From: Chlamydiia bacterium
Lineage (GTDB): Bacteria > Chlamydiota > Chlamydiia > Chlamydiales > Simkaniaceae
NCBI GenBank assembly: GCA_030429605.1
Contig: JAUIEV010000002.1
Span: 62,001-126,000 of the forward strand
DNA: 64,000 nucleotides
Reading direction: 5' to 3'
Positions 47,800-62,579 of this stretch are shown in pieces. The translations under genes and the position numbers were made by a program. Positions within the stretch are counted from its first letter, which is position 1. The number at the start of each line of letters is the position of its first letter. The notes under the pieces are model-generated. The model did not search any database, was not told the origin of the DNA, and worked only from the letters and a program-made list of their open reading frames with translations.

Positions 47800-49170
47800 A
47801 TGCGGGAAAAAATGAAAGGTACGTTCTATGTCATTGTTGCTATGATTGCAGGGCTTGCCGGTATATTATTTGGCTATGACACAGGTGTTATGTCAGGGGC
47901 TATTCTTTTTATTGGAAAAGAGTTCACGCTCTCTCCACTTGTCAATGGAATTGTTGTTGCAGCAGTCTTGCTTGGAGCTTTTTTAGGGGCTATTTTATCC
48001 GGGGTGCTGACTGATAGATACGGAAGAAGAAAAGTACTGATTGCCGTCTCCCTTGTTTTTATTGTTGGTACCGCTTTGAGTGCATCTGTTTTTACCATTT
48101 CCCTTCTTATTTTCGCTCGATTTATTGTTGGTATTGCAATAGGAATAGCATCGTATGCGGCGCCTCTGTATATTTCAGAAATATCTCCTCCAAGATACCG
48201 GGGAGCATTGGTTTCTCTCAACCAACTTACTATTAGCGTTGGTATCTTGCTTTCATATATTGTTGATTATTTGTTTTCTGCGAGTGAGAACTGGCGAGGA
48301 ATGCTTGCCATAGGTGTCCTTCCGGCACTTTTTTTATTAGCTGGCATGTACTTTCTCCCGTCATCTCCACGCTGGTTAGTCGGTGAAGGTCGAAAAACAG
48401 ATGCGCTTGATGTACTAGCTACCTTACGCGGCTCGATGCCCCTTGCGGTCAAAGAGCTAGATGATATTGTTGAGACAACAAAACAAGAGAAAGGCTCTTT
48501 TGCTGAATTGTTTTCAAAAAAAGTTCGTCCTGTTTTGTGGATTGGAGCACTTCTTGCAATTATTCAGCAGGTAACAGGAATCAACACCATTTTATACTAT
48601 GCACCTACTATTTTTGAAATGGCAGGGTTCCACAGTTCTACAGCATCCATTCTTGCAACAATGGGAGTTGGTGTTATTTTTGTTCTATTCACTGTGATAG
48701 CACTCCCTCTTATTGATTCATGGGGAAGGCGCCCTTTGTTACTTCTGGGCCTTTCAGGAATGTTTGTGTCGTTGAGTGCGCTTTCAATGAGTTTTTTCAT
48801 CCTTCGTTCGAGTGGGATAGGAAAAGGATTGGCACTTGCATCTATGCTTGTGTACATCGCAAGTTTTGCGATTTCACTCGGACCAATTATGTGGCTCATG
48901 ATAGCAGAAATATATCCATTACGAGTTCGGGGTATGGGAGCTAGTTTTGCAACGTGCATAAACTGGGCAAGTAATTGGCTTGTGACTGTCACTTTCTTGA
49001 CACTCGTTTCTAGCATCGGAACGACTGGCACTTTTCTTTTGTATGCATGTTTTTGTATTGCTTCTCTTTTGTTCGTCGTCTTTTTTGTACCTGAAACAAA
49101 AGGCGTTACACTCGAAAAAATCGAGAGAAATTTATTTGCTGGCAAACCATGGCGGAAGCTCGGAGTATGA
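47800..49170 (+). CDS. MFS sugar porter (probable D-xylose/H+ symporter)
   Basis: The 456-aa transporter has 12 membrane helices and all sugar porter family signatures: AGILFGYDTGVMSGAI, DRYGRRK, RFIVGIAIGIASYAAPLYISEISPPRYRG (in pieces), SSPRWLVGEGR, QQVTGINTILYYAPTIFE, and PETKG near the end. It resembles XylE/AraE-type proton symporters. It overlaps xylB, and xylB overlaps xylA, so it most likely imports D-xylose. The ATG at 47800 has GAGGA upstream; an in-frame ATG at 47812 is an alternative. Confidence 0.9.
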   Translation: MREKMKGTFYVIVAMIAGLAGILFGYDTGVMSGAILFIGKEFTLSPLVNGIVVAAVLLGAFLGAILSGVLTDRYGRRKVLIAVSLVFIVGTALSASVFTISLLIFARFIVGIAIGIASYAAPLYISEISPPRYRGALVSLNQLTISVGILLSYIVDYLFSASENWRGMLAIGVLPALFLLAGMYFLPSSPRWLVGEGRKTDALDVLATLRGSMPLAVKELDDIVETTKQEKGSFAELFSKKVRPVLWIGALLAIIQQVTGINTILYYAPTIFEMAGFHSSTASILATMGVGVIFVLFTVIALPLIDSWGRRPLLLLGLSGMFVSLSALSMSFFILRSSGIGKGLALASMLVYIASFAISLGPIMWLMIAEIYPLRVRGMGASFATCINWASNWLVTVTFLTLVSSIGTTGTFLLYACFCIASLLFVVFFVPETKGVTLEKIERNLFAGKPWRKLGV

Positions 49171-50660
49171 TGTATCTTGGAATTGATCTTGGGACCTCAA
49201 GTGTAAAGCTTGCGCTGATAAATCAACAGGGTGAGTGTATCGCAGATGCTTCTGCACCACTTTCAACCAATTCACCTCATCCATTGTGGTCTGAACAGAA
49301 CCCCGAAGAGTGGTGGCAAGCACTCCTTTTAGCTGCAGATAGTTTGAAAAAAGAACATGGAAAATCTCTGAAAACAGTACAAGGTATTGGTCTTTCTGGA
49401 CAGCAACACGGGGCTACGTTTGTTGATGCGCATGGAACACCTTTACGTCCTGCAATCCTTTGGAACGACGGCAGATCGTATAAAGAATGCAGTGATCTTG
49501 AAGAGCTAGTTCCAAATGCATGGGATATTACAAAGAATCGTGTGTATCCAGGGTTTACCGCGCCCAAAGTGAAGTGGGTTCAGAAACATGAGGCAGACGT
49601 ATTTAAGAAAACGGCAAAAATTTTGCTTCCGAAAGATTACCTGCGATTTAAGTTGTCTGGAACCTATGGAACTGATGTGAGTGATGCATCAGGTACATCG
49701 TGGTTAGATGTCGAAAAAAGATCTTGGTCACAAGAAATGCTCAGTGCGTGTGATTTAACAGAAGAGCATATGCCTACCGTATTTGAAGGGACAGACAAAA
49801 CGGGGGCAGTGCTTCAATCTGTTGCAAATCTTTTGGGTGTTCCTTCAAGGACTCCGATCTTTGCAGGAGGAGGCGACAATCCAGCCTCTGCATTGAGTGT
49901 GAACTGCGTCTCTCATAAGGATGCATTTATCTCACTTGGGACATCAGGGGTGTTTTTTGTTGCCTCAGAAACAACCCGCGCGAATCCAAAAGGGTGTGTG
50001 CACACAATGTGTCATGCCATTCCAAATATGTGGCACCACATGACAGTCCATTTAAGCGCAGCAAGTTGTTTTGACTTTGTGCAAAAAATGACCCATGCGT
50101 CTTCACTGTCTGATTTATTTGCAGCAGTTGAAGCGAATTTTTCTCCTGAAAATAGCGTCTATTTTCTGCCGTTTCTTTCCGGTGAACGAACGCCATACAA
50201 TAATCCCCAGTCTCGAGGTGTATTCTTTGGGCTGGAGCATAAAACAAGAAATGTTTCCTTATTACAAGCAGCTATTGAGGGTGTCGCATTTAACTTTGCA
50301 AATGGGCAAGAAGAAATGGAGAAAGTGGGGATTGAGATTGGCGATGTTTCTGTTGTAGGGGGAGGTTCAAGAAATCTGTTTGTAGGGAAAATACTCGCCT
50401 CAGCTCTCAACAGACCTCTTTTTTACAGAAAAAACCGCGCACTTGGAGGAGCTATCGGGGCTGCACGCTTAGCTCTTTTAGGTCATACATTTACACAGCC
50501 AGAAGATGTTTTTACACATTCATCAATTGAGACGGTTGTTTCACCTGATCCATATTTGGCTGAACTCTATGAAAAAAAACGTGCACTTTTTACCTCACTT
50601 TACTATGAGTTAGAGCCAAGTTTTTCGAAGGCGTATGCCCTAAGGAAGGAATATGAGTAA
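49167..50660 (+). CDS. xylB: Xylulokinase
   Basis: The FGGY-family kinase has 497 aa from the ATG at 49167 (an adjacent ATG at 49170 and one at 49149 are alternatives; the family begins MYLGIDLGTSSVKL). Motifs present are the N-terminal phosphate-1 loop DLGTSSVKLALINQQG, GIGLSGQQHGATFVD, ILWNDGRSYKEC, ISLGTSGVFFVAS, and GGGSRNLFVGKILASAL in the C-terminal domain. It phosphorylates D-xylulose made by XylA, to give xylulose 5-phosphate for the pentose phosphate pathway. It overlaps both neighbours by a few bases. Confidence 0.95.
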   Translation: MMYLGIDLGTSSVKLALINQQGECIADASAPLSTNSPHPLWSEQNPEEWWQALLLAADSLKKEHGKSLKTVQGIGLSGQQHGATFVDAHGTPLRPAILWNDGRSYKECSDLEELVPNAWDITKNRVYPGFTAPKVKWVQKHEADVFKKTAKILLPKDYLRFKLSGTYGTDVSDASGTSWLDVEKRSWSQEMLSACDLTEEHMPTVFEGTDKTGAVLQSVANLLGVPSRTPIFAGGGDNPASALSVNCVSHKDAFISLGTSGVFFVASETTRANPKGCVHTMCHAIPNMWHHMTVHLSAASCFDFVQKMTHASSLSDLFAAVEANFSPENSVYFLPFLSGERTPYNNPQSRGVFFGLEHKTRNVSLLQAAIEGVAFNFANGQEEMEKVGIEIGDVSVVGGGSRNLFVGKILASALNRPLFYRKNRALGGAIGAARLALLGHTFTQPEDVFTHSSIETVVSPDPYLAELYEKKRALFTSLYYELEPSFSKAYALRKEYE

Positions 50661-51960
50661 CTATTTTTCGAAGTTTCCAAAGATTGAATATAAAGGGCCG
50701 GATTCAGAAGACCCACTCTCATATAAATACTACGATCCGAAGAGGATTGTTTTGGGAAAGACAATGGAGGAACATCTCCGCATTGGGGTTTGTTTTTGGC
50801 ACAACTTTTGCTGGGAAGGAGCTGATGTTTTCGGGGATCCGACAATGAATCGCCCTTGGTTGAAGAAAGAGAGTCCAATGGAAACAGCGAGAGAGCGGGT
50901 GAAAGCTGCCTTCGAGTTTTTTGAAAAAATCAATGTGCCGTATTTTTGTTTTCATGATCGGGATGTTTCTCCATATGGAAAAACTATTCAGGAGTCAAAT
51001 GAGAACCTGTCAACTGTTGCCTCCTGGATTCATGAAGAGATGGAGAGGACAGGGAAAGAACTTCTATGGGGTACTGCGCAACTTTTTGCTCATCCACGGT
51101 TTATGAGTGGTGCAGCAACAAATCCAGACCCTGAAGTGTTTGCCTACTCAGTAGCTCAACTCAAGCACGCACTCGATATAACACACCAGCTAAAGGGGCA
51201 TAATTATGTTCTTTGGGGTGGTCGTGAAGGGTATGAAACGTTACTCAATACTGATCTTTCAAAAGAAATGGATCAATACGGTCGGTTTCTCTCTATGATT
51301 GCAGAGTATAAACACAAAATTGGGTTTAAAGGGCTACTCCTTATAGAACCTAAACCATGTGAACCTACGATTCATCAATACGACTTTGATTGTGGGCACG
51401 TATATGCCTTCTTGCAAAAATACGGCCTAGAGAATGAGTTTAAAGTGAATATCGAGGTTAATCACGCTATTTTAGCGGGGCATACGTTTGCCCACGAGGT
51501 TGCATATGCTCTCTCTAATGGTATTTTTGGAAGTATTGATGCAAATGAAGGAGACTACCTTCGAGGGTGGGATACAGACCAATTTCCTATGCGACTGAGT
51601 GAGTATACGCATGTTATGTACCTTCTTTTGCAAAATGGAGGGTTTACATCAGGTGGGTTTAATTTAGACACAAAACTGAGACGCCAGAGTATTGACCTTG
51701 AAGACCTTTTTCATGCGCATATTTTAGGGATTGATACGTTAGCAAGAGCGCTTCTCAATGCATCTGAACTGATTGAAAAAAAGGCACTATCGAATACGCT
51801 TGAAAAGAGGTATGCAGGTTGGGAAGGTCCATTTGGCAAAAAAGTTATAGAAGCGGCAAGTTTAGAGTCTGTTGCAGCCCTTGGGGAATCTGTCGATCCG
51901 AAACCAAAATCCGGCAGACAGGAGTATCTTGAAGGTATACTTAATACATTTACTCGATAA
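50653..51960 (+). CDS. xylA: Xylose isomerase
   Basis: The 435-aa TIM-barrel enzyme interconverts D-xylose and D-xylulose with two divalent metal ions. Family motifs are seen in order: RIGVCFWHNFCWEGADVFG, YFCFHDRDVSP (catalytic His), GAATNPDPEVFAYS, YVLWGGREGYETLLNT, LLIEPKPCEPTIHQYDFD (metal ligands), NIEVNHAILAGHTFAHEVA and GSIDANEGDYLRGWDTDQFP. The length is that of the class II enzyme. AAGGAAGGA precedes the ATG, which overlaps the xylB stop. It closes the transporter-xylB-xylA operon. Confidence 0.97.
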   Translation: MSNYFSKFPKIEYKGPDSEDPLSYKYYDPKRIVLGKTMEEHLRIGVCFWHNFCWEGADVFGDPTMNRPWLKKESPMETARERVKAAFEFFEKINVPYFCFHDRDVSPYGKTIQESNENLSTVASWIHEEMERTGKELLWGTAQLFAHPRFMSGAATNPDPEVFAYSVAQLKHALDITHQLKGHNYVLWGGREGYETLLNTDLSKEMDQYGRFLSMIAEYKHKIGFKGLLLIEPKPCEPTIHQYDFDCGHVYAFLQKYGLENEFKVNIEVNHAILAGHTFAHEVAYALSNGIFGSIDANEGDYLRGWDTDQFPMRLSEYTHVMYLLLQNGGFTSGGFNLDTKLRRQSIDLEDLFHAHILGIDTLARALLNASELIEKKALSNTLEKRYAGWEGPFGKKVIEAASLESVAALGESVDPKPKSGRQEYLEGILNTFTR

Positions 51961-52020: not shown

Positions 52021-53250
52021 ATGTCACTTATTTCTACAACACTCTCAGGAGTGCGCAGCCTATCTGAGCTCTTTCCAGGAGAGCTAGCTTTTCGCCGCAT
52101 TGAAGATAAAATTGCTGCTGTAGCATTGTGTGTATTTGCTGCATGTGCTTCTGTGTTCGTTTCAACACTTGCCTTCACTGCATGCATTCTCTTAACGGCT
52201 ACCGTCTCTTTTGTTCCGATTGTAAATCATAGGCGTACGGAGGAGCTTATACTGATGGGGTATTCGTATAGTGGCAATGTATTGAAAATATCCCTTCCAT
52301 ATGTCAAGCGATACCCAAAAGAAATTGCAATGCTTCTTACGACAAAAGGATTGCCGCGACTCGTTCTTTTGCATGAAAGCCCCCGTACCATTGATGCTGG
52401 AGGTGTGAGAAAGCAATTTTTTGCAACCCTCATCAAGGCGTTTTGTTCGACTCTCTCTAAAAATGAGAGGACAGGTGTGCCACAGATTGCATCAATGGAT
52501 GGGGAAGAAATGAGAGGTCTATACACTCTTTTAGGGAAGCTGTATAGTTTGCTTCTTACACAAAAGAGTGCAAAACCTGATCAAGTGTTAGTTGCAGGTG
52601 ATGTCCTTCCTGAGGGGTATTTTAGGCTCCTTGAAACCTTGTCAGAAGAAACTGATGGAGAAGCGCTAGCCCGTTTTGCACCTCTTCTTTCATCGATTGA
52701 CACTTCATTAAAAGAGCCTGCTCTTGTAGTACATAATCGTGGTAACAGAGCTATCTCTTCCCGTTTCGCAGCACATTTTGGCATTCCATCATCTGATGCA
52801 TATGCAGTTGCACGAGAGTATATTATTCCATATGTTGACGCTGCGAGAGCTTTTCTCCGAGGAGGAGGTAAAGCATTAAAAGATGCGCTCAGTCGACAAG
52901 GTGCTGATGCGCTGGAAAGAGTACTTCAAGGAGAGCCTCTCTCAAGTTATCGAATGATTGAATCAATTGACTTTTCCGGCAGTCGCACTCATCCGCATGC
53001 CTCATTTTTAACAGAAAAAATTTTGTTTAGTTCAAAGGTGTGGAGGAGAGAATTTCTCCGTGCTGTCACAGGTAACCGGACGCTTCCTACTGGCTCTCGT
53101 ATTTCAGTACGAGTTGATGAGAGAGGCAGTGTGTTTCATTTTCATACATGTTTTAACAGGGTAACGCTCCCTGGGGTACCTCTAGAAAAAGAGGCATTTT
53201 TCTCTTTTCTGGATGCATCAATACGCGGCGAGCATTTCAATGTGGGATAA
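52021..53250 (+). CDS. HECT-type E3 ubiquitin ligase homologue with membrane hairpin (409 aa)
   Basis: Residues about 30-68 form two hydrophobic helices (IAAVALCVFAACASVFVS and AFTACILLTATVSFVPI), like an inclusion-membrane hairpin. The rest reads as a HECT domain: PRLVLLHESPRTIDAGGVRKQF (like RxWxxFESExGLDxGGVxREWF in eukaryotic HECT N-lobes), LYTLLGKLYSLLL (FxFIGRxxGLAL), FLRGGGKALKDALSR, then in the C-lobe REFLRAVTGNRTLPTGSR (LLQFVTGTSRVPxxGF) and FHTCFNRVTLPG, with the catalytic Cys377 in the classical HTCFNxLxLP context. HECT ligases take ubiquitin from an E2 onto this Cys and pass it to a substrate. Bacteria lack ubiquitin, so it should act in the host. GAGGAG precedes the ATG. Confidence 0.88.
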   Translation: MSLISTTLSGVRSLSELFPGELAFRRIEDKIAAVALCVFAACASVFVSTLAFTACILLTATVSFVPIVNHRRTEELILMGYSYSGNVLKISLPYVKRYPKEIAMLLTTKGLPRLVLLHESPRTIDAGGVRKQFFATLIKAFCSTLSKNERTGVPQIASMDGEEMRGLYTLLGKLYSLLLTQKSAKPDQVLVAGDVLPEGYFRLLETLSEETDGEALARFAPLLSSIDTSLKEPALVVHNRGNRAISSRFAAHFGIPSSDAYAVAREYIIPYVDAARAFLRGGGKALKDALSRQGADALERVLQGEPLSSYRMIESIDFSGSRTHPHASFLTEKILFSSKVWRREFLRAVTGNRTLPTGSRISVRVDERGSVFHFHTCFNRVTLPGVPLEKEAFFSFLDASIRGEHFNVG

Positions 53251-53262
53251 CGTTCAGTTAGT

Positions 53263-53291
53263 TTGCTAGAATCGGTATGTCTGGATATATA
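53263..53291 (+). promoter_or_regulatory. Predicted promoter of the 131-aa gene
   Basis: TTGCTA and TATATA are spaced by 17 bases, about 70 bases before the ATG at 53360. Confidence 0.45.
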
Positions 53292-53359
53292 GCTGGAAAA
53301 AAAATTGCCTAATATTAACACTTTCTTTAAGATTTTGAAAAATCAATTTGAGAGTACAT

Positions 53360-53755
53360 ATGGCAGTTCATTTCCTTCTTTACAATCGTCATCCCTTAAC
53401 AAGTGCTATGGTTGCTCGCGATCTTGGATATAATAGTCCTACACAAAAAATACAGGTCATAGCCCTTGCCTTTTTTGCAACGGCTGGTCTTGCTCTTGCT
53501 GGTCTAGCTGTCCCTGCAACATGTGCAGCACTTGCACTTGTCGTTTCTATTCTTATTCCTATTATTCCTTTTCGATCTTCCGAATCAGAAGTGTATGGAG
53601 CTGAACCTGAGCTTGTTCGAGACCCTAGTATGAGACGTGCAGAAGGATTCGCAGAACCGCTAAGCGATGCTTCTGCAAGACCTCTACTGAATGCACTTCT
53701 TAGATCAATGGAGACTACTCGAGTAGGACATAGAGCAGCAGCGGTCCTTTGTTAG
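53360..53755 (+). CDS. Orphan membrane-hairpin module, paralogue of the HECT protein N-terminus
   Basis: The product is 131 aa from the ATG at 53360, which aligns with the start of the next gene (MAVHFLLYNRHPLT here, MAVNFLLYNRHPLT there) and has GAGAG upstream. The shared part continues through two membrane helices (about residues 30-70, with ALAFFATAGLALAGL and LALVVSILIPIIPFR). After that only about 60 polar residues follow and the HECT domain is absent. The downstream spacer of 66 bases contains no HECT remnant, so it is either a truncated duplicate or an independent inclusion-membrane-like protein. Confidence 0.7.
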   Translation: MAVHFLLYNRHPLTSAMVARDLGYNSPTQKIQVIALAFFATAGLALAGLAVPATCAALALVVSILIPIIPFRSSESEVYGAEPELVRDPSMRRAEGFAEPLSDASARPLLNALLRSMETTRVGHRAAAVLC

Positions 53756-53821
53756 AAAATAGCTGTTTATGATTATTTACATATTCTTTATACTCACGCC
53801 CCTATTCATTTTGGGGTTATT

Positions 53822-55501
53822 ATGGCAGTTAATTTTCTACTTTACAATCGACATCCTCTAACGAATACTATGCTGACGCAAGGTATTGCATATGAAAATG
53901 AAAGGCAAAAGGTGGCGGTCGTAGCGCTTGCCTTTTTTGCGACGGTTTCTTTTGCTGTTGCCGGCCTTGTGAGTTCTACAACACTTGCTTCCCTTGTACT
54001 TGTCGTTTCAGTTCTTGTTCCAATAATGCCTTTTCGAGATGGTGAGGGTGTGCCGGTTCTTCTTCCGGATGTTGGAGGTGGTGCTGAAGACCCAGATGAT
54101 AGAGAACCTCCAATCGATCCTCCAGGTGGTGGTTCTGCAGTGGGCGTGGCTGCTCCTGTACGACCTTCTATTAATCCGTTTGATCCTGGTCTCGTAGCTT
54201 CGGCAGAACATGTAGTTACGGCAGCACGTATGGCATTGACTCAAGGTCGTCGTACTGATGCGGAACTGCGTCGGGCTTACACCCGAATTCGACAAACTCC
54301 TGTACGAGCCTCTGTACTAGCTGCACCGACGTCGGCACGGCCAACACCTTCCGTTGGAGGGAGTGGAACCCTGACTCCGGAACAGCGACGAGCACGTATT
54401 CGACAAGCGATGGATCGGAGGGAAATACGATATTCTGGAGGGAGCCTTTCCCTGAGTTTAGATTTTTTAAAAAACAATCCTCTCCTCATGCTACAGTTTG
54501 TGTGTGAATATGGCATACCATCAAGAGTAACGTTTCTTAGAGTCGATCGTTCTGGGGTACTCAGAAGCATCGCTGCTATTGATGCTGGAGGGTTGAGAAG
54601 GCAGTTTCTTGGAATTCTTATGGAAGCTGTTTCAAATACTATTTCAAAAACATCAGGTGCTCCGTACCTACCTTATATTCCTGCTGAAGGTGATCTACCC
54701 CCATCTCGAGTGAATCAACTCGAGATGTACAATCGGCTTGGTAATTTATATTCAAAGATTTTAGCGAGATCTGGTGAGGGCTTTGTTACCGGGCACATTT
54801 TTGATCCGTGTTTTGTTCAGATGCTTGCAGTCTGTGCTAGGGAAGGTGATCATACACGCCAAATGAGTATGATTGCAAACATTGTAGCAGATAAAGATCC
54901 ACATTTTACTTCGGTTGCTGCTTTGCTTCGAAATCCTGCTGATGCTTCAGCAAGAGCAACTGTAGCTGCGATATTTGCTTGTGAAGAGCATGAAGCAGAA
55001 GCAGAAGCGTGTAAGGCGGTGAGTGCCTACCACCTTCCTTGCATGTCCATTTTGGCAGGAGGGGGTGAAGCTTTTGAGCGACGAATCCTCGCTTCGAGGA
55101 ATTTGCATGTTCTCGCTCATTCGATTCAAGGGCAATCAATAAGCAAAAGTGCTCTTCTTGGTGCATTGGTTAATAATAATGCATGGAGCCTTAGCCAAGC
55201 CTCAGCTCGTCACTTCTCGTGGCTTCAAGAAATGGTGCGAGAGTCAGATGAAGAATGGCGACGAAAGTTTGTATTTGCAGCGTCCGGTCAGTCTGTGCTT
55301 CCCGTTGGACAAAGAATCAAAATAAATCCAACGCGTGGCGCCGGAGGTGTTGTTGCATACCACACCTGTTTTTACGAGGTAGATCTGCCGGGAGAAACTA
55401 TTGTGGACGATCACAGGCGACGTATCCCTCTTACAAAGGAAAAATTCAAAGAGCTCGTGAACTTTTCACTTGAAGGATGTGATGGTTTTTCTGCTGTGTA
55501 G
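53822..55501 (+). CDS. HECT-type E3 ubiquitin ligase homologue with membrane hairpin (559 aa)
   Basis: The N-terminal 75 residues are the membrane-hairpin module shared with the gene upstream. A Pro/Gly/Arg-rich linker follows (about 75-200). The HECT-like part (about 205-555) has VTFLRVDRSGVLRSIAAIDAGG with GGLRRQFLGILMEAV, YNRLGNLYSKIL, and in the C-lobe RRKFVFAASGQSVLPVGQR and YHTCFYEVDLPGE with the catalytic Cys516. It is paralogous to the 409-aa protein two genes upstream, with about 150 extra residues in the linker. Some HECT positions differ (FVTG is FAASG). The same mode of action on host ubiquitin is inferred. A terminator follows. Confidence 0.85.
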   Translation: MAVNFLLYNRHPLTNTMLTQGIAYENERQKVAVVALAFFATVSFAVAGLVSSTTLASLVLVVSVLVPIMPFRDGEGVPVLLPDVGGGAEDPDDREPPIDPPGGGSAVGVAAPVRPSINPFDPGLVASAEHVVTAARMALTQGRRTDAELRRAYTRIRQTPVRASVLAAPTSARPTPSVGGSGTLTPEQRRARIRQAMDRREIRYSGGSLSLSLDFLKNNPLLMLQFVCEYGIPSRVTFLRVDRSGVLRSIAAIDAGGLRRQFLGILMEAVSNTISKTSGAPYLPYIPAEGDLPPSRVNQLEMYNRLGNLYSKILARSGEGFVTGHIFDPCFVQMLAVCAREGDHTRQMSMIANIVADKDPHFTSVAALLRNPADASARATVAAIFACEEHEAEAEACKAVSAYHLPCMSILAGGGEAFERRILASRNLHVLAHSIQGQSISKSALLGALVNNNAWSLSQASARHFSWLQEMVRESDEEWRRKFVFAASGQSVLPVGQRIKINPTRGAGGVVAYHTCFYEVDLPGETIVDDHRRRIPLTKEKFKELVNFSLEGCDGFSAV

Positions 55502-55533: not shown

Positions 55534-55562
55534 AAAGCTGCCTACATAGGCAGCTTTTTTTT
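55534..55562 (+). terminator. Rho-independent terminator after the second HECT gene
   Basis: AGCTGCCTA pairs with TAGGCAGCT over a two-base centre, followed by at least eight T residues. Confidence 0.85.
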
Positions 55563-55662: not shown

Positions 55663-56295
55663 ATGGAGCAGGAGAATAAAAAAAGCTGTCCTTTCTGGAT
55701 GATGTGGGTTCGACCCAGAGAAACGGTAAGAAAAATAGCAGACCAAAAACCACGGTCCGGCTTTTGCCTTCTGTCCTTTCTATACGGGGTAAATTTTCTT
55801 TTTTTCCTCTCTCAGCTTCTGTATTTATCAGATGCAATGCCTCTTTGGGGGATTGTAGTTGGATCGCTCATTCTAGCTGCGCCAGTAGGAGCCCTGCTTA
55901 TCTATCTTTACGCTTTTTTTGTGTACTGGCTAGGAAAGCTCATTAAAGGAAATGGCTCTTTTCAAGGGGTTCGAGTTGCTGTTACATGGTCGCTTGTGAC
56001 GAACAGTGTCAATGTGCTTGTATGGTTTGCATACATTATTACATTTGGAAGCATTGTCTTTCTGCCTTCTTTTTCGGTCATGCATTTTAGTGGGGTTGCT
56101 TCCATCATTTTAACCATGGGAAGCTGGGCGACACTTGTTGCTTCAATTTGGGGAATCGTCATTCTTGTTCAAGCTGTTGGGGAAATCCAAGGGTTTTCTG
56201 CATGGATGGGTTTGTTAAATGTTGTGTTGGCGTCAGTTGCTGTTAGCGTCATCTACTACATAATAGGATTATTAATTCAATACGCTGTGTATTAA
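55663..56295 (+). CDS. Yip1-domain membrane protein
   Basis: The 210-aa protein has the Yip1 domain layout: a short cytosolic N-terminus with the WVRPRETVRKIADQKP motif (WxxPRExxxxI in bacterial members), then five hydrophobic helices with GVNFLFFLSQLLYL, LAAPVGALLIYLYAFFVYWLGKLIKG, FQGVRVAVTWSLV and a final pair of helices. In eukaryotes Yip1 proteins help vesicle trafficking; bacterial members are inner membrane proteins of unknown function. AGAGGAATAAG precedes the ATG. It is followed 19 bases later by an exported protein gene, probably cotranscribed. Confidence 0.85.
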   Translation: MEQENKKSCPFWMMWVRPRETVRKIADQKPRSGFCLLSFLYGVNFLFFLSQLLYLSDAMPLWGIVVGSLILAAPVGALLIYLYAFFVYWLGKLIKGNGSFQGVRVAVTWSLVTNSVNVLVWFAYIITFGSIVFLPSFSVMHFSGVASIILTMGSWATLVASIWGIVILVQAVGEIQGFSAWMGLLNVVLASVAVSVIYYIIGLLIQYAVY

Positions 56296-60437: not shown

Positions 60438-62579
60438 ATGGAGAAACGAATTCTTGGAGATTACACACTCTTACATAAATTAGGAAACGGAACCCTTGGT
60501 GAAACGTATCTCGCAGAGCATCGGTTTATTAAAAAACGCTTTGTTCTGAAAATTCTCCCTCAAGAACTAGCAAATGATGCTGATTTTGTTGCCCGTTTTG
60601 AAGCACATATAGCAGCTCTTGCTACACTGGATCACCAAAACATTGTCAAGGTCCATACAGTGTCTCATTCCGACGGGTGCTACTTTCTTGTAAGCGATTT
60701 TGTAGAAAATGAGCGAGGTGAAGGGGAAAACGTATTTGATTACCTTCGCCAGTCAAGGCGAACACTTTCAGAAGAAGAAGTACTTGATTTTCTCCATCAG
60801 ATTGCCTCTGCGCTGCAGTATGCTCACGGACAAAAAGTGAATGGATATCAGCTAACGCATCGAGACCTTAAATTAAACAACATCCTTGTGAAGGAAGTTG
60901 ATGGACGTCCAAGGCCCTTCATTACCGACTTTGGACTTGGGGTGCTTGTTGGAGAAGCAAAAATTTTAACCTCAATGTACGCTCATTTAGCAGAACTTGT
61001 TGGAATAGATGATTCCTCTTCGAAAAACAACGCCAAAACCCACTCTTTCCTAACTGGTGACTTTGACGTTTCTAAACTTTCAAAACTCCACTTTTCTTTC
61101 TACCAAACCTATGCTTTTCTCGCTCCGGAGCAACGAATTTACCGAGGTGTAGAGCACGGGGTGACTGCGGATATTTATGCCTTTGGCGTGCTTGCGTACT
61201 TCCTTTTAATGCGAAGCTTCCCTGAAGGGTACTTCACAATGCCATCTTTGGTTCGAAACGACCTCTCCCTAAACTGGGATGGACTTTTCCAATCCGCACT
61301 GCAGCCGAATCCTAATAAGAGGCCCCGTACAGCTCTCGAAGCAATGGAGCAGGTCAAGCGGAATGCTCCTGTGCATGATGTTATGACGCGTGTTTCTACT
61401 GAAGAGCAAAAAAGAAGCTATCAAACGCGGTTTGAAGCTGCTGCAGCTCCGGCGTATCCCTCACAACCATCCCGCTCAAACGAGCCGCCTTCAAGGCAAA
61501 CTGATTTTTTTGATCAGGGACGAAGCGCTCGTGTTGACGCCCATGCAAACTACGCGCAGACTTCACCTGCAGTTGATCAAACAATCCGTCCTCCACTTCC
61601 TGAAGGTGTGCAATACATGAGTTCAAAAGGGACAGAGGGTGCTACAGCAACACAAAGTGCCGTGAAGCCTAATACTGAAATGGTCTCACAGGTTTCACGA
61701 ATGGTACAGGATGAGCATAAACCGCATCCGGTACTGAATCCTCCTGAAATAGAGCGCCCAGTGTACGAGCCTGATCCAGGAAAAGTGTTTCAAATGGAAA
61801 CAACCGTTGCACCTTACAAGCCTGAAGAAAAAAAGGTGAAAGATGTTGAGCCAATTCTGACAGACATGGTTGTAGTGAAAGGTGGTGAGTTTTCTCGCGG
61901 TTCAAATGGGGGAGTACGTGATGAGCGCCCTCGCCATAAAATCTGGCTCAATGATTTTGCAATTGATATTCACGCTGTTTCAAATGAACAATTTGTTCGC
62001 TTTCTTGAAGCAATGGGTGGTGAAAAAGATTCCAACAATAATGACATCATTAAACTCAGAGATTCAAAGATAAAACGCTTTAGCGGCGAGTACACGATAG
62101 AGTCAGGGTACGCAAGACATCCTGTGATTGGTGTGACGTGGTACGGTGCGACAGCTTATGCAAAATGGATAGGTAAGCGCCTTCCGACAGAAGCTGAGTT
62201 TGAAATTGCTGCTCGTGGTGGACTTGTTGATGCATTGTATCCTACAGGTGATGATATTGATCGATCTCAAGCAAACTTTTTTAGTTCTGATACATCGGAA
62301 GTTATGAGTTTTCCTCCAAATGGATATGGTTTGTATGACATGGTTGGTAATGTCTACGAATGGTGTGAGGATTGGTATGGCTACGATTACTATGAGGATT
62401 CATCTCAAGAACCTCATAACCCTAAGGGGCCAATTCAAGGGGTGTATAGAGTTCTTCGAGGCGGATGCTGGAAAAGCTTAAAAGAAGATCTTCGAACATC
62501 GCATAGACATAGAAACAACCCCGCAACAGTGAACTCAACATATGGGTTTAGATGTTGCGCTGATGTTGCTTCTTCATGA
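60438..62579 (+). CDS. pkn1: Ser/Thr protein kinase Pkn1 with FGE-sulfatase domain
   Basis: The 713-aa protein has an N-terminal Hanks-type kinase domain (about residues 5-310): loop LGNGTLGETYLAEH, Lys in FVLKIL, catalytic THRDLKLNNILV, TDFGLGV, and FLAPEQR. A Pro/Ser/Gln-rich linker (about 315-465) leads to a formylglycine-generating-enzyme/sulfatase-modifying domain (about 470-711: MVVVKGGEFSRGSNGG, WYGATAYAKWIGKRLPTEAEFE, YGLYDMVGNVYEWCEDWYG, YRVLRGGCWKS). This combination is that of chlamydial Pkn1. No membrane helix is seen. It overlaps the phosphatase gene downstream by 4 bases. Confidence 0.92.
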   Translation: MEKRILGDYTLLHKLGNGTLGETYLAEHRFIKKRFVLKILPQELANDADFVARFEAHIAALATLDHQNIVKVHTVSHSDGCYFLVSDFVENERGEGENVFDYLRQSRRTLSEEEVLDFLHQIASALQYAHGQKVNGYQLTHRDLKLNNILVKEVDGRPRPFITDFGLGVLVGEAKILTSMYAHLAELVGIDDSSSKNNAKTHSFLTGDFDVSKLSKLHFSFYQTYAFLAPEQRIYRGVEHGVTADIYAFGVLAYFLLMRSFPEGYFTMPSLVRNDLSLNWDGLFQSALQPNPNKRPRTALEAMEQVKRNAPVHDVMTRVSTEEQKRSYQTRFEAAAAPAYPSQPSRSNEPPSRQTDFFDQGRSARVDAHANYAQTSPAVDQTIRPPLPEGVQYMSSKGTEGATATQSAVKPNTEMVSQVSRMVQDEHKPHPVLNPPEIERPVYEPDPGKVFQMETTVAPYKPEEKKVKDVEPILTDMVVVKGGEFSRGSNGGVRDERPRHKIWLNDFAIDIHAVSNEQFVRFLEAMGGEKDSNNNDIIKLRDSKIKRFSGEYTIESGYARHPVIGVTWYGATAYAKWIGKRLPTEAEFEIAARGGLVDALYPTGDDIDRSQANFFSSDTSEVMSFPPNGYGLYDMVGNVYEWCEDWYGYDYYEDSSQEPHNPKGPIQGVYRVLRGGCWKSLKEDLRTSHRHRNNPATVNSTYGFRCCADVASS

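What the first reader, a model, noticed from the sequence alone, without database searches (positions are those of the whole stretch)
52021..55501. Two HECT-type ubiquitin ligases fused to an inclusion-membrane-like hairpin
Seen in the sequence: the 409-aa and 559-aa proteins carry, in order, GG(V/L)RxQF in the N-lobe context DAGG, a LGxLYSxxL helix, an RxFxxAxxGxxxLPxG(S/Q)R segment, and HTCFNRVTLPG / HTCFYEVDLPGE. This is the order and spacing of eukaryotic HECT domains, with the catalytic Cys at 377 and 516 (codons 53149-53151 and 55367-55369). Both begin with a pair of hydrophobic helices instead of a WW or C2 region. Known: bacterial HECT-like effectors such as SopA and NleL resemble HECT in structure more than in sequence; direct HECT sequence homologues in bacteria are rare, and chlamydial ubiquitin systems described so far are mostly F-box, RING/U-box, BTB and proteases. 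Inference: a membrane-anchored E3 ligase displayed on the inclusion surface, acquired from a eukaryotic host.
Basis: partly seen in the sequence, partly recalled or inferred. Interest (0 to 1): 0.95.

Follow-up and report, generated by a model that had tools for sequence, protein, structure and literature searches.

The report
Membrane-anchored HECT ubiquitin ligases in chlamydiae
An unnamed relative of Chlamydia carries two neighbouring genes whose products have the sequence signature and predicted fold of HECT ubiquitin ligases, enzymes typical of eukaryotic cells, joined to a greasy N-terminal segment that likely anchors them in the membrane around the bacterium, where they would tag host proteins with the host's own ubiquitin.

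The parts
52021..53250 (+). ORF1, 409 aa: hydrophobic N-terminal segment plus HECT domain
52111..52224 (+). ORF1 charge-free hydrophobic stretch, residues 31-68 (likely membrane hairpin)
   Evidence: low-confidence helix
52267..53247 (+). ORF1 HECT domain, residues 83-409
52393..52404 (+). ORF1 DAGG of the N-lobe (residues 125-128)
53149..53151 (+). ORF1 predicted catalytic Cys377 in HTCF
53236..53238 (+). ORF1 Phe406, the -4 aromatic
53360..53755 (+). hairpin-only gene, 131 aa from its ATG; same N-terminal module as ORF2, no HECT
   Evidence: (57% identity over 76 aa); no Pfam match
53822..55501 (+). ORF2, 559 aa: hairpin, low-confidence linker, HECT domain
53912..54034 (+). ORF2 charge-free hydrophobic stretch, residues 31-71 (bilobed; two predicted helices)
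54431..55498 (+). ORF2 HECT domain, residues 204-559
54581..54592 (+). ORF2 DAGG of the N-lobe (residues 254-257)
55367..55369 (+). ORF2 predicted catalytic Cys516 in HTCF
55487..55489 (+). ORF2 Phe556, the -4 aromatic
55534..55557 (+). terminator-like stem (10 pairs) before a T run, just after ORF2
   Evidence: 9 such sites in the region against 4.2 expected, so suggestive only

Best explanation
ORF1 and ORF2 encode proteins with a complete eukaryote-type HECT domain by sequence profile and predicted fold, which would act as ubiquitin ligases that are likely exported by the bacterium's type III system and likely anchored by their N-terminal hairpin in the membrane of the vacuole (inclusion) that holds the bacterium. 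In this reading a host E2 would pass ubiquitin to Cys377 or Cys516 in the C-lobe, the -4 Phe (406, 556) would lock C-lobe to N-lobe for ligation, and the tethered enzyme would ubiquitinate whatever host protein comes near the inclusion surface. The HECT modules likely descend from a chlamydial family whose three other members in the same genome carry ankyrin-type repeats, likely for substrate choice; in ORF1 and ORF2 membrane location would replace that targeting. Shown here: homology, predicted fold, motif retention, phylum distribution and tree position. Inferred: activity, E2 use, export, location and substrates.
Against: Neither protein alone finds a HECT by phmmer in the PDB: no hit for ORF1, HUWE1 at E 1.6 and third in rank for ORF2. 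ORF2 is below the Pfam cut-off. The E2-binding sub-domain looks the most diverged part: ORF1 residues 200-293 are all helix in the model and the profile alignment to HUWE1 is weak there, so E2 use is unproven. ORF1's hydrophobic stretch is 38 residues and ORF2's 41, against the published Inc rule of more than 40 residues or two segments of 20-30. Without the requirement that no later segment exists, a strong N-terminal segment is in 18 of 57 HECT proteins but also in 6 of 33 controls, which include transporters. The type III ATPase SctN was not found in this assembly, though 20 of 27 family genomes have it at E <= 1e-100. Of the 57 proteins, 7 lack the -4 aromatic and 13 lack H[TS]C in their last 120 residues, so parts of the family may be inactive or divergent.
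Confidence: 0.6

Rival explanations
1. Active HECT ligases of the same origin that sit elsewhere: the hairpin places them in another host membrane (ER, mitochondria, vesicles) or they act from the bacterial envelope, not the inclusion.
For: Bilobed or single hydrophobic segments are not specific to inclusions; the 38-residue stretch of ORF1 is shorter than the usual Inc rule; a chlamydial RING ligase, SneRING, was reported in host cytosol with part of it at membranes and mitochondria (PMC12591485, passages).
Against: In 11 of the 18 HECT proteins with a strong N-terminal segment it starts at residue 31-39, after a polar N-terminus, which resembles the Inc layout; type III gate present.
Confidence: 0.2
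2. Catalytically weak or dead HECT folds used as host-ubiquitin or E2 binders, that is decoys or scaffolds.
For: Diverged all-helical E2 region; some relatives have lost HTC or the -4 aromatic.
Against: ORF1, ORF2 and the three paralogues keep HTCF and the -4 aromatic, and in the family the aromatic is confined to that position, which decoys would not need.
Confidence: 0.13
3. Members of the bacterial HECT-like (bHECT, SopA/NleL) family that only converge on HECT.
For: These are the known bacterial thioester-forming ligases with a HECT-like domain.
Against: Profile and Pfam matches are to eukaryotic HECT; the 60 PDB sequences shown of 71 matched include none named SopA or NleL. bHECT C-lobes lack the beta-sheet (PMC10274628, passages), while the ORF1 C-lobe model has strands 361-366, 373-375 and 380-384.
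Confidence: 0.02
4. Decaying gene copies or contaminating eukaryotic DNA.
For: A hairpin-only gene lies between the two, as a broken copy might.
Against: The window lies on a 398-kb contig with bacterial neighbours; both frames are open; public data hold another version of ORF1, 95% identical and also 409 aa; 38 other genomes of the phylum have the family.
Confidence: 0.03

Closest known systems
Eukaryotic HECT E3 ligases, nearest HUWE1 by profile and fold (also AREL1, TOM1, UBR5, TRIP12, HECTD3)
   Same: Bilobal domain at the C terminus, DAGG in the N-lobe, HTCF catalytic Cys, C-lobe strands, -4 aromatic, LP after the Cys motif
   Different: About 12-20% identity in the full-domain structural alignments; E2-binding sub-domain all-helical in the model and diverged; N-terminus a membrane segment; encoded by bacteria
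Chlamydial inclusion membrane (Inc) proteins
   Same: Polar N-terminus of about 30 residues, then a long hydrophobic, roughly bilobed domain, then a soluble domain (criterion from PMC3290821, passages)
   Different: 38-41 residues, at the lower limit; joined to an enzyme domain; export and location untested
Bacterial HECT-like ligases (SopA, NleL, VsHECT and others; PMC10274628)
   Same: Predicted to accept ubiquitin on a C-lobe Cys from a host E2
   Different: Described there as evolutionarily distinct, many with an N-terminal beta-helix, and without the C-lobe beta-sheet (passages); the present proteins match eukaryotic HECT
Chlamydial F-box, BTB and RING/U-box families (PMC4209131) and SneRING (PMC12591485)
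   Same: Host-ubiquitin effectors of environmental chlamydiae
   Different: Adaptors or RING-type; HECT is not mentioned in the main text of PMC4209131 and only as background in PMC12591485 (term look-ups)

Membership tests
HECT E3 ligase (eukaryote type) | Significant match to the HECT family profile | tested here: met
   PF00632 24.3 bits over the 23.9 cut-off for ORF1; ORF2 22.3 bits, under it, 24.0 and over it in the genome search; chlamydial profile to HUWE1 1.4e-20
HECT E3 ligase (eukaryote type) | Bilobal HECT fold at the C terminus | tested here: met
HECT E3 ligase (eukaryote type) | Catalytic Cys in the HTCF context some 30-45 residues from the C terminus | tested here: met
   ORF1 Cys377 of 409 and ORF2 Cys516 of 559, both in HTCF; ORF2 has an insertion after the Cys
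HECT E3 ligase (eukaryote type) | Aromatic (Phe) at position -4 | tested here: met
   Phe406 and Phe556; 50 of 57 in the family have F or Y
HECT E3 ligase (eukaryote type) | Recognisable E2-binding sub-domain | tested here: inconclusive
   diverged, all-helical in the model; weak profile alignment there
HECT E3 ligase (eukaryote type) | Ubiquitin thioester and ligase activity | not testable with these tools
   needs purified protein
Inclusion membrane (Inc) protein | Bilobed hydrophobic domain of more than 40 residues, or two segments of 20-30 with a short loop | tested here: inconclusive
   charge-free stretches of 38 (ORF1), 39 (hairpin-only gene) and 41 (ORF2) residues; a dip at 51-55 is clearest in ORF2
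Inclusion membrane (Inc) protein | Type III export | not testable with these tools
   SctV family present, SctN not found in this assembly
Inclusion membrane (Inc) protein | Location at the inclusion membrane | not testable with these tools
   needs microscopy
bHECT (SopA/NleL) | C-lobe without beta-sheet | tested here: not met
   ORF1 C-lobe model has strands 361-366, 373-375, 380-384; feature from PMC10274628 passages
bHECT (SopA/NleL) | Sequence match to the SopA/NleL family | tested here: inconclusive
   none listed at E up to 10 in Pfam, but the filters drop weak matches

The most novel reading that the evidence does not exclude
Chlamydiota hold an unreported, phylum-wide arsenal of eukaryote-type HECT ligases, and on several separate occasions have welded the HECT domain to a membrane hairpin, so that a ubiquitin ligase displayed on the inclusion surface is a recurrent chlamydial invention; the trio in this window shows it forming from a hairpin module and a duplicated HECT gene of the ankyrin-HECT clade.
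Probability: 0.5. Interest if true: 0.87.

Novelty: new variant of a known kind. Interest (0 to 1): 0.76.

Why it matters
Bacterial HECT-like ligases described in the papers read here are an evolutionarily distinct, structurally different family. A sequence-level HECT family in obligate intracellular bacteria, with a membrane-anchored form, would show that bacteria have taken over the eukaryotic HECT machine itself. It would give chlamydiae a direct way to write ubiquitin at the inclusion, a surface where host defence can also place ubiquitin (recalled). Two carriers appear to be cultured organisms (by recalled replicon sizes), so the idea is testable now.

Tried and rejected
Single-sequence searches were too weak: the search for homologous proteins with ORF1, ORF2 and profile A1 returned only ORF1/ORF2 copies, each scoring only the roughly 8000 candidates that share most words; phmmer against the PDB failed. 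The genome-wide profile searches were what worked.

Considered and set aside: bHECT membership (C-lobe strands; its absence from the structural rows proves nothing). That the Waddlia-sized genome's HECT is the known inclusion protein Wimp1: that is Wcw_1131 with a RasGEF domain and no predicted transmembrane domain (PMC6925127, passages), while L146 has no Pfam match at E <= 0.01 and a hydrophobic segment. That each HECT was taken separately from eukaryotes: the tree groups ORF1 and ORF2 with chlamydial HECTs, but with only three eukaryotic rows and weak deep branches it cannot date or root the original transfer. The type III ATPase family as proof of a secretion system in this assembly: one search gave only sub-cut-off matches, read by me as other ATPases (inferred). 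A first control for hydrophobic segments used a slightly looser rule for HECT proteins than for controls; the identical rule gives the same 17 of 57 against 1 of 33.

Rows dropped before counts: of the 60 proteins, the hairpin-only gene, L149 (stretch cut short by my fetch) and L155 (masked end) were left out, which leaves 57. L030 reads as masked letters and was not used. The 57 are the stronger, mostly full-length matches I chose to fetch plus those of the window's genome, not every match of the 39 genomes.
Full report
What is there. The window holds three consecutive + strand genes after a xylose-isomerase-like gene: ORF1 (52021-53250, 409 aa), a hairpin-only gene (53360-53755, 131 aa from its ATG) and ORF2 (53822-55501, 559 aa), followed by a terminator-like stem at 55534-55557.

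Which organism. The window is part of a 1.79-Mb assembly of 10 contigs, 93% complete. Genomes that the search calls kin of the same order have contigs whose lengths equal those of named records: G149 C2 101003 = CAMFIG010000002.1, G116 C137 76844 = JANWJE010000137.1, G103 C1 143045 = JABDDC010000001.1, all titled Chlamydiae or Parachlamydiaceae. The window's own family contains a genome with contigs of 2,496,337 and 132,038 bases, which I recall as the replicons of Simkania negevensis; the window is therefore likely from a Simkaniaceae member.

A functional signature. HECT ligases need an aromatic residue four positions from the C terminus; in Rsp5 its loss blocks ligation but not thioester formation (PMC3738095, passages read), and it is conserved in E6AP (PMC6463701, passages). 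ORF1 ends FNVG and ORF2 FSAV. Of 57 chlamydial HECT proteins examined, 50 have F or Y at -4 (27 F, 23 Y), while positions -1 to -3 and -5 to -8 have 0 to 4 aromatics of 57. After thinning at 40% identity it is 36 of 42. The 7 exceptions are L108, L117, L132, L134, L138, L148 and L150. This suggests that the domain is kept for HECT chemistry. H[TS]C is found in the last 120 residues of 44 of 57, and a simple DxGG pattern in 40 of 57, so the family is not uniform.

How widespread. PF00632 rings in 6 of 27 genomes of the family, own included, and in 30 of 232 of the phylum at E <= 0.01, 17 over the cut-off, and in none of 14 control genomes (at the looser E <= 1 two controls ring, none over the cut-off). 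The A1 profile finds 39 of 232 at E <= 0.001, in 10 family labels. In 195 genomes of another phylum the only hit is the genome chosen as centre because it carries HECT, so 0 of the other 194. A scan of GTDB contigs with two degenerate patterns confirmed 14 loci among 68 matched stretches, 12 of them in records titled Chlamydiae, Parachlamydiaceae or Parachlamydia. A genome with a 2,116,312-base contig (recalled as the Waddlia chondrophila chromosome) has a 675-aa member (L146; 1.4e-40), and the Simkania-sized genome a 915-aa member (L099 1018-3762; 4.7e-37), both with an N-terminal hydrophobic segment.

Architectures and evolution. The same genome carries three further HECT proteins of 1042, 801 and 873 aa, at L006 8955-12083, L006 12297-14702 and L007 248-2869. 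Ankyrin repeats pass their cut-off in the first two and are sub-threshold in the third. In a 61-row tree ORF1 and ORF2 pair (94/89, below the starred level) and sit inside a well-supported clade (100/94) with these three paralogues and HECT proteins of G083, G149 and G168; of that clade outside the window's genome I tested only L106 (G149) for ankyrin repeats, and it has them. Eighteen of 57 HECT proteins have a strong N-terminal hydrophobic segment, in 11 of the 18 starting at residue 31-39; 6 of 33 other proteins of this window, which include transporters, have one too. With the demand that no later segment exists it is 17 of 57 against 1 of 33. On the tree the label needs six changes, five of them forced by well-supported branches, so HECT-membrane fusion was gained or lost repeatedly. 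The hairpins of the three window genes are related: hairpin-only gene against ORF2 57% over 76 aa; ORF1 against ORF2 was reached by 1 of 1000, and ORF1 against the hairpin-only gene by 3 of 1000, shuffles that keep hydrophobic part and flanks apart.

Mechanism. Best reading: exported by type III secretion, inserted by the hairpin in the inclusion membrane with the HECT domain on the host side, charged by a host E2, ubiquitinating proteins at the inclusion surface. The SctV family is present; SctN was not found in this assembly, though 20 of 27 family genomes have it at E <= 1e-100, so a gap in the assembly is likelier than loss (inferred). Main doubt: the E2-binding sub-domain looks diverged and is modelled as helices only. 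Hydrophobic lengths of 38, 39 and 41 residues sit at the edge of the published Inc rule (PMC3290821, passages).

In print. Searches pairing HECT with Chlamydiae, chlamydial effectors, Waddlia, Simkania, Chlamydiota and Parachlamydia, and two broader ones, gave no chlamydial HECT in the listings. Term look-ups showed none in PMC4209131 (0 mentions) or PMC12591485 (background only); the hit in PMC10877369 is an author's first name. PMC13125535, which holds both HECT and Simkania, was seen only as a listing. This covers only the open library held here, and most listed papers were seen as titles and abstract starts only.

Noticed in passing
window 47800-51960: Sugar transporter, FGGY kinase (xylulokinase-like) and xylose-isomerase-like genes in a row, directly upstream of ORF1: a likely xylose-use operon in a chlamydial genome (the isomerase match, 29 bits, is below its Pfam cut-off).
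   Followed up: partly
L098 and genome G232: A MAG titled Bdellovibrionales has HECT matches on three contigs, one of them only 22 codons long; the one tested groups with eukaryotic HECTs in the tree (100/99). A real second bacterial lineage or contamination was not resolved.
   Followed up: partly
L119, L122, L125, L126 (G149 contig C2): One chlamydial MAG has a tandem array of four HECT genes in about 11 kb with similar C-terminal ends and a shared insertion after the Cys motif.
   Followed up: no
L093 (G065 contig C90): A record titled Verrucomicrobia bacterium SZAS-7 has a contig of the same length (35687) as a genome placed in the same order as the window, so its title is probably wrong.
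   Followed up: no
window 60438-62579: Protein kinase domain fused to an FGE-sulfatase-like domain; I recall this architecture from chlamydial Pkn1.
   Followed up: no
window 55663-56295: Yip1-domain membrane protein right after ORF2's terminator-like stem.
   Followed up: no
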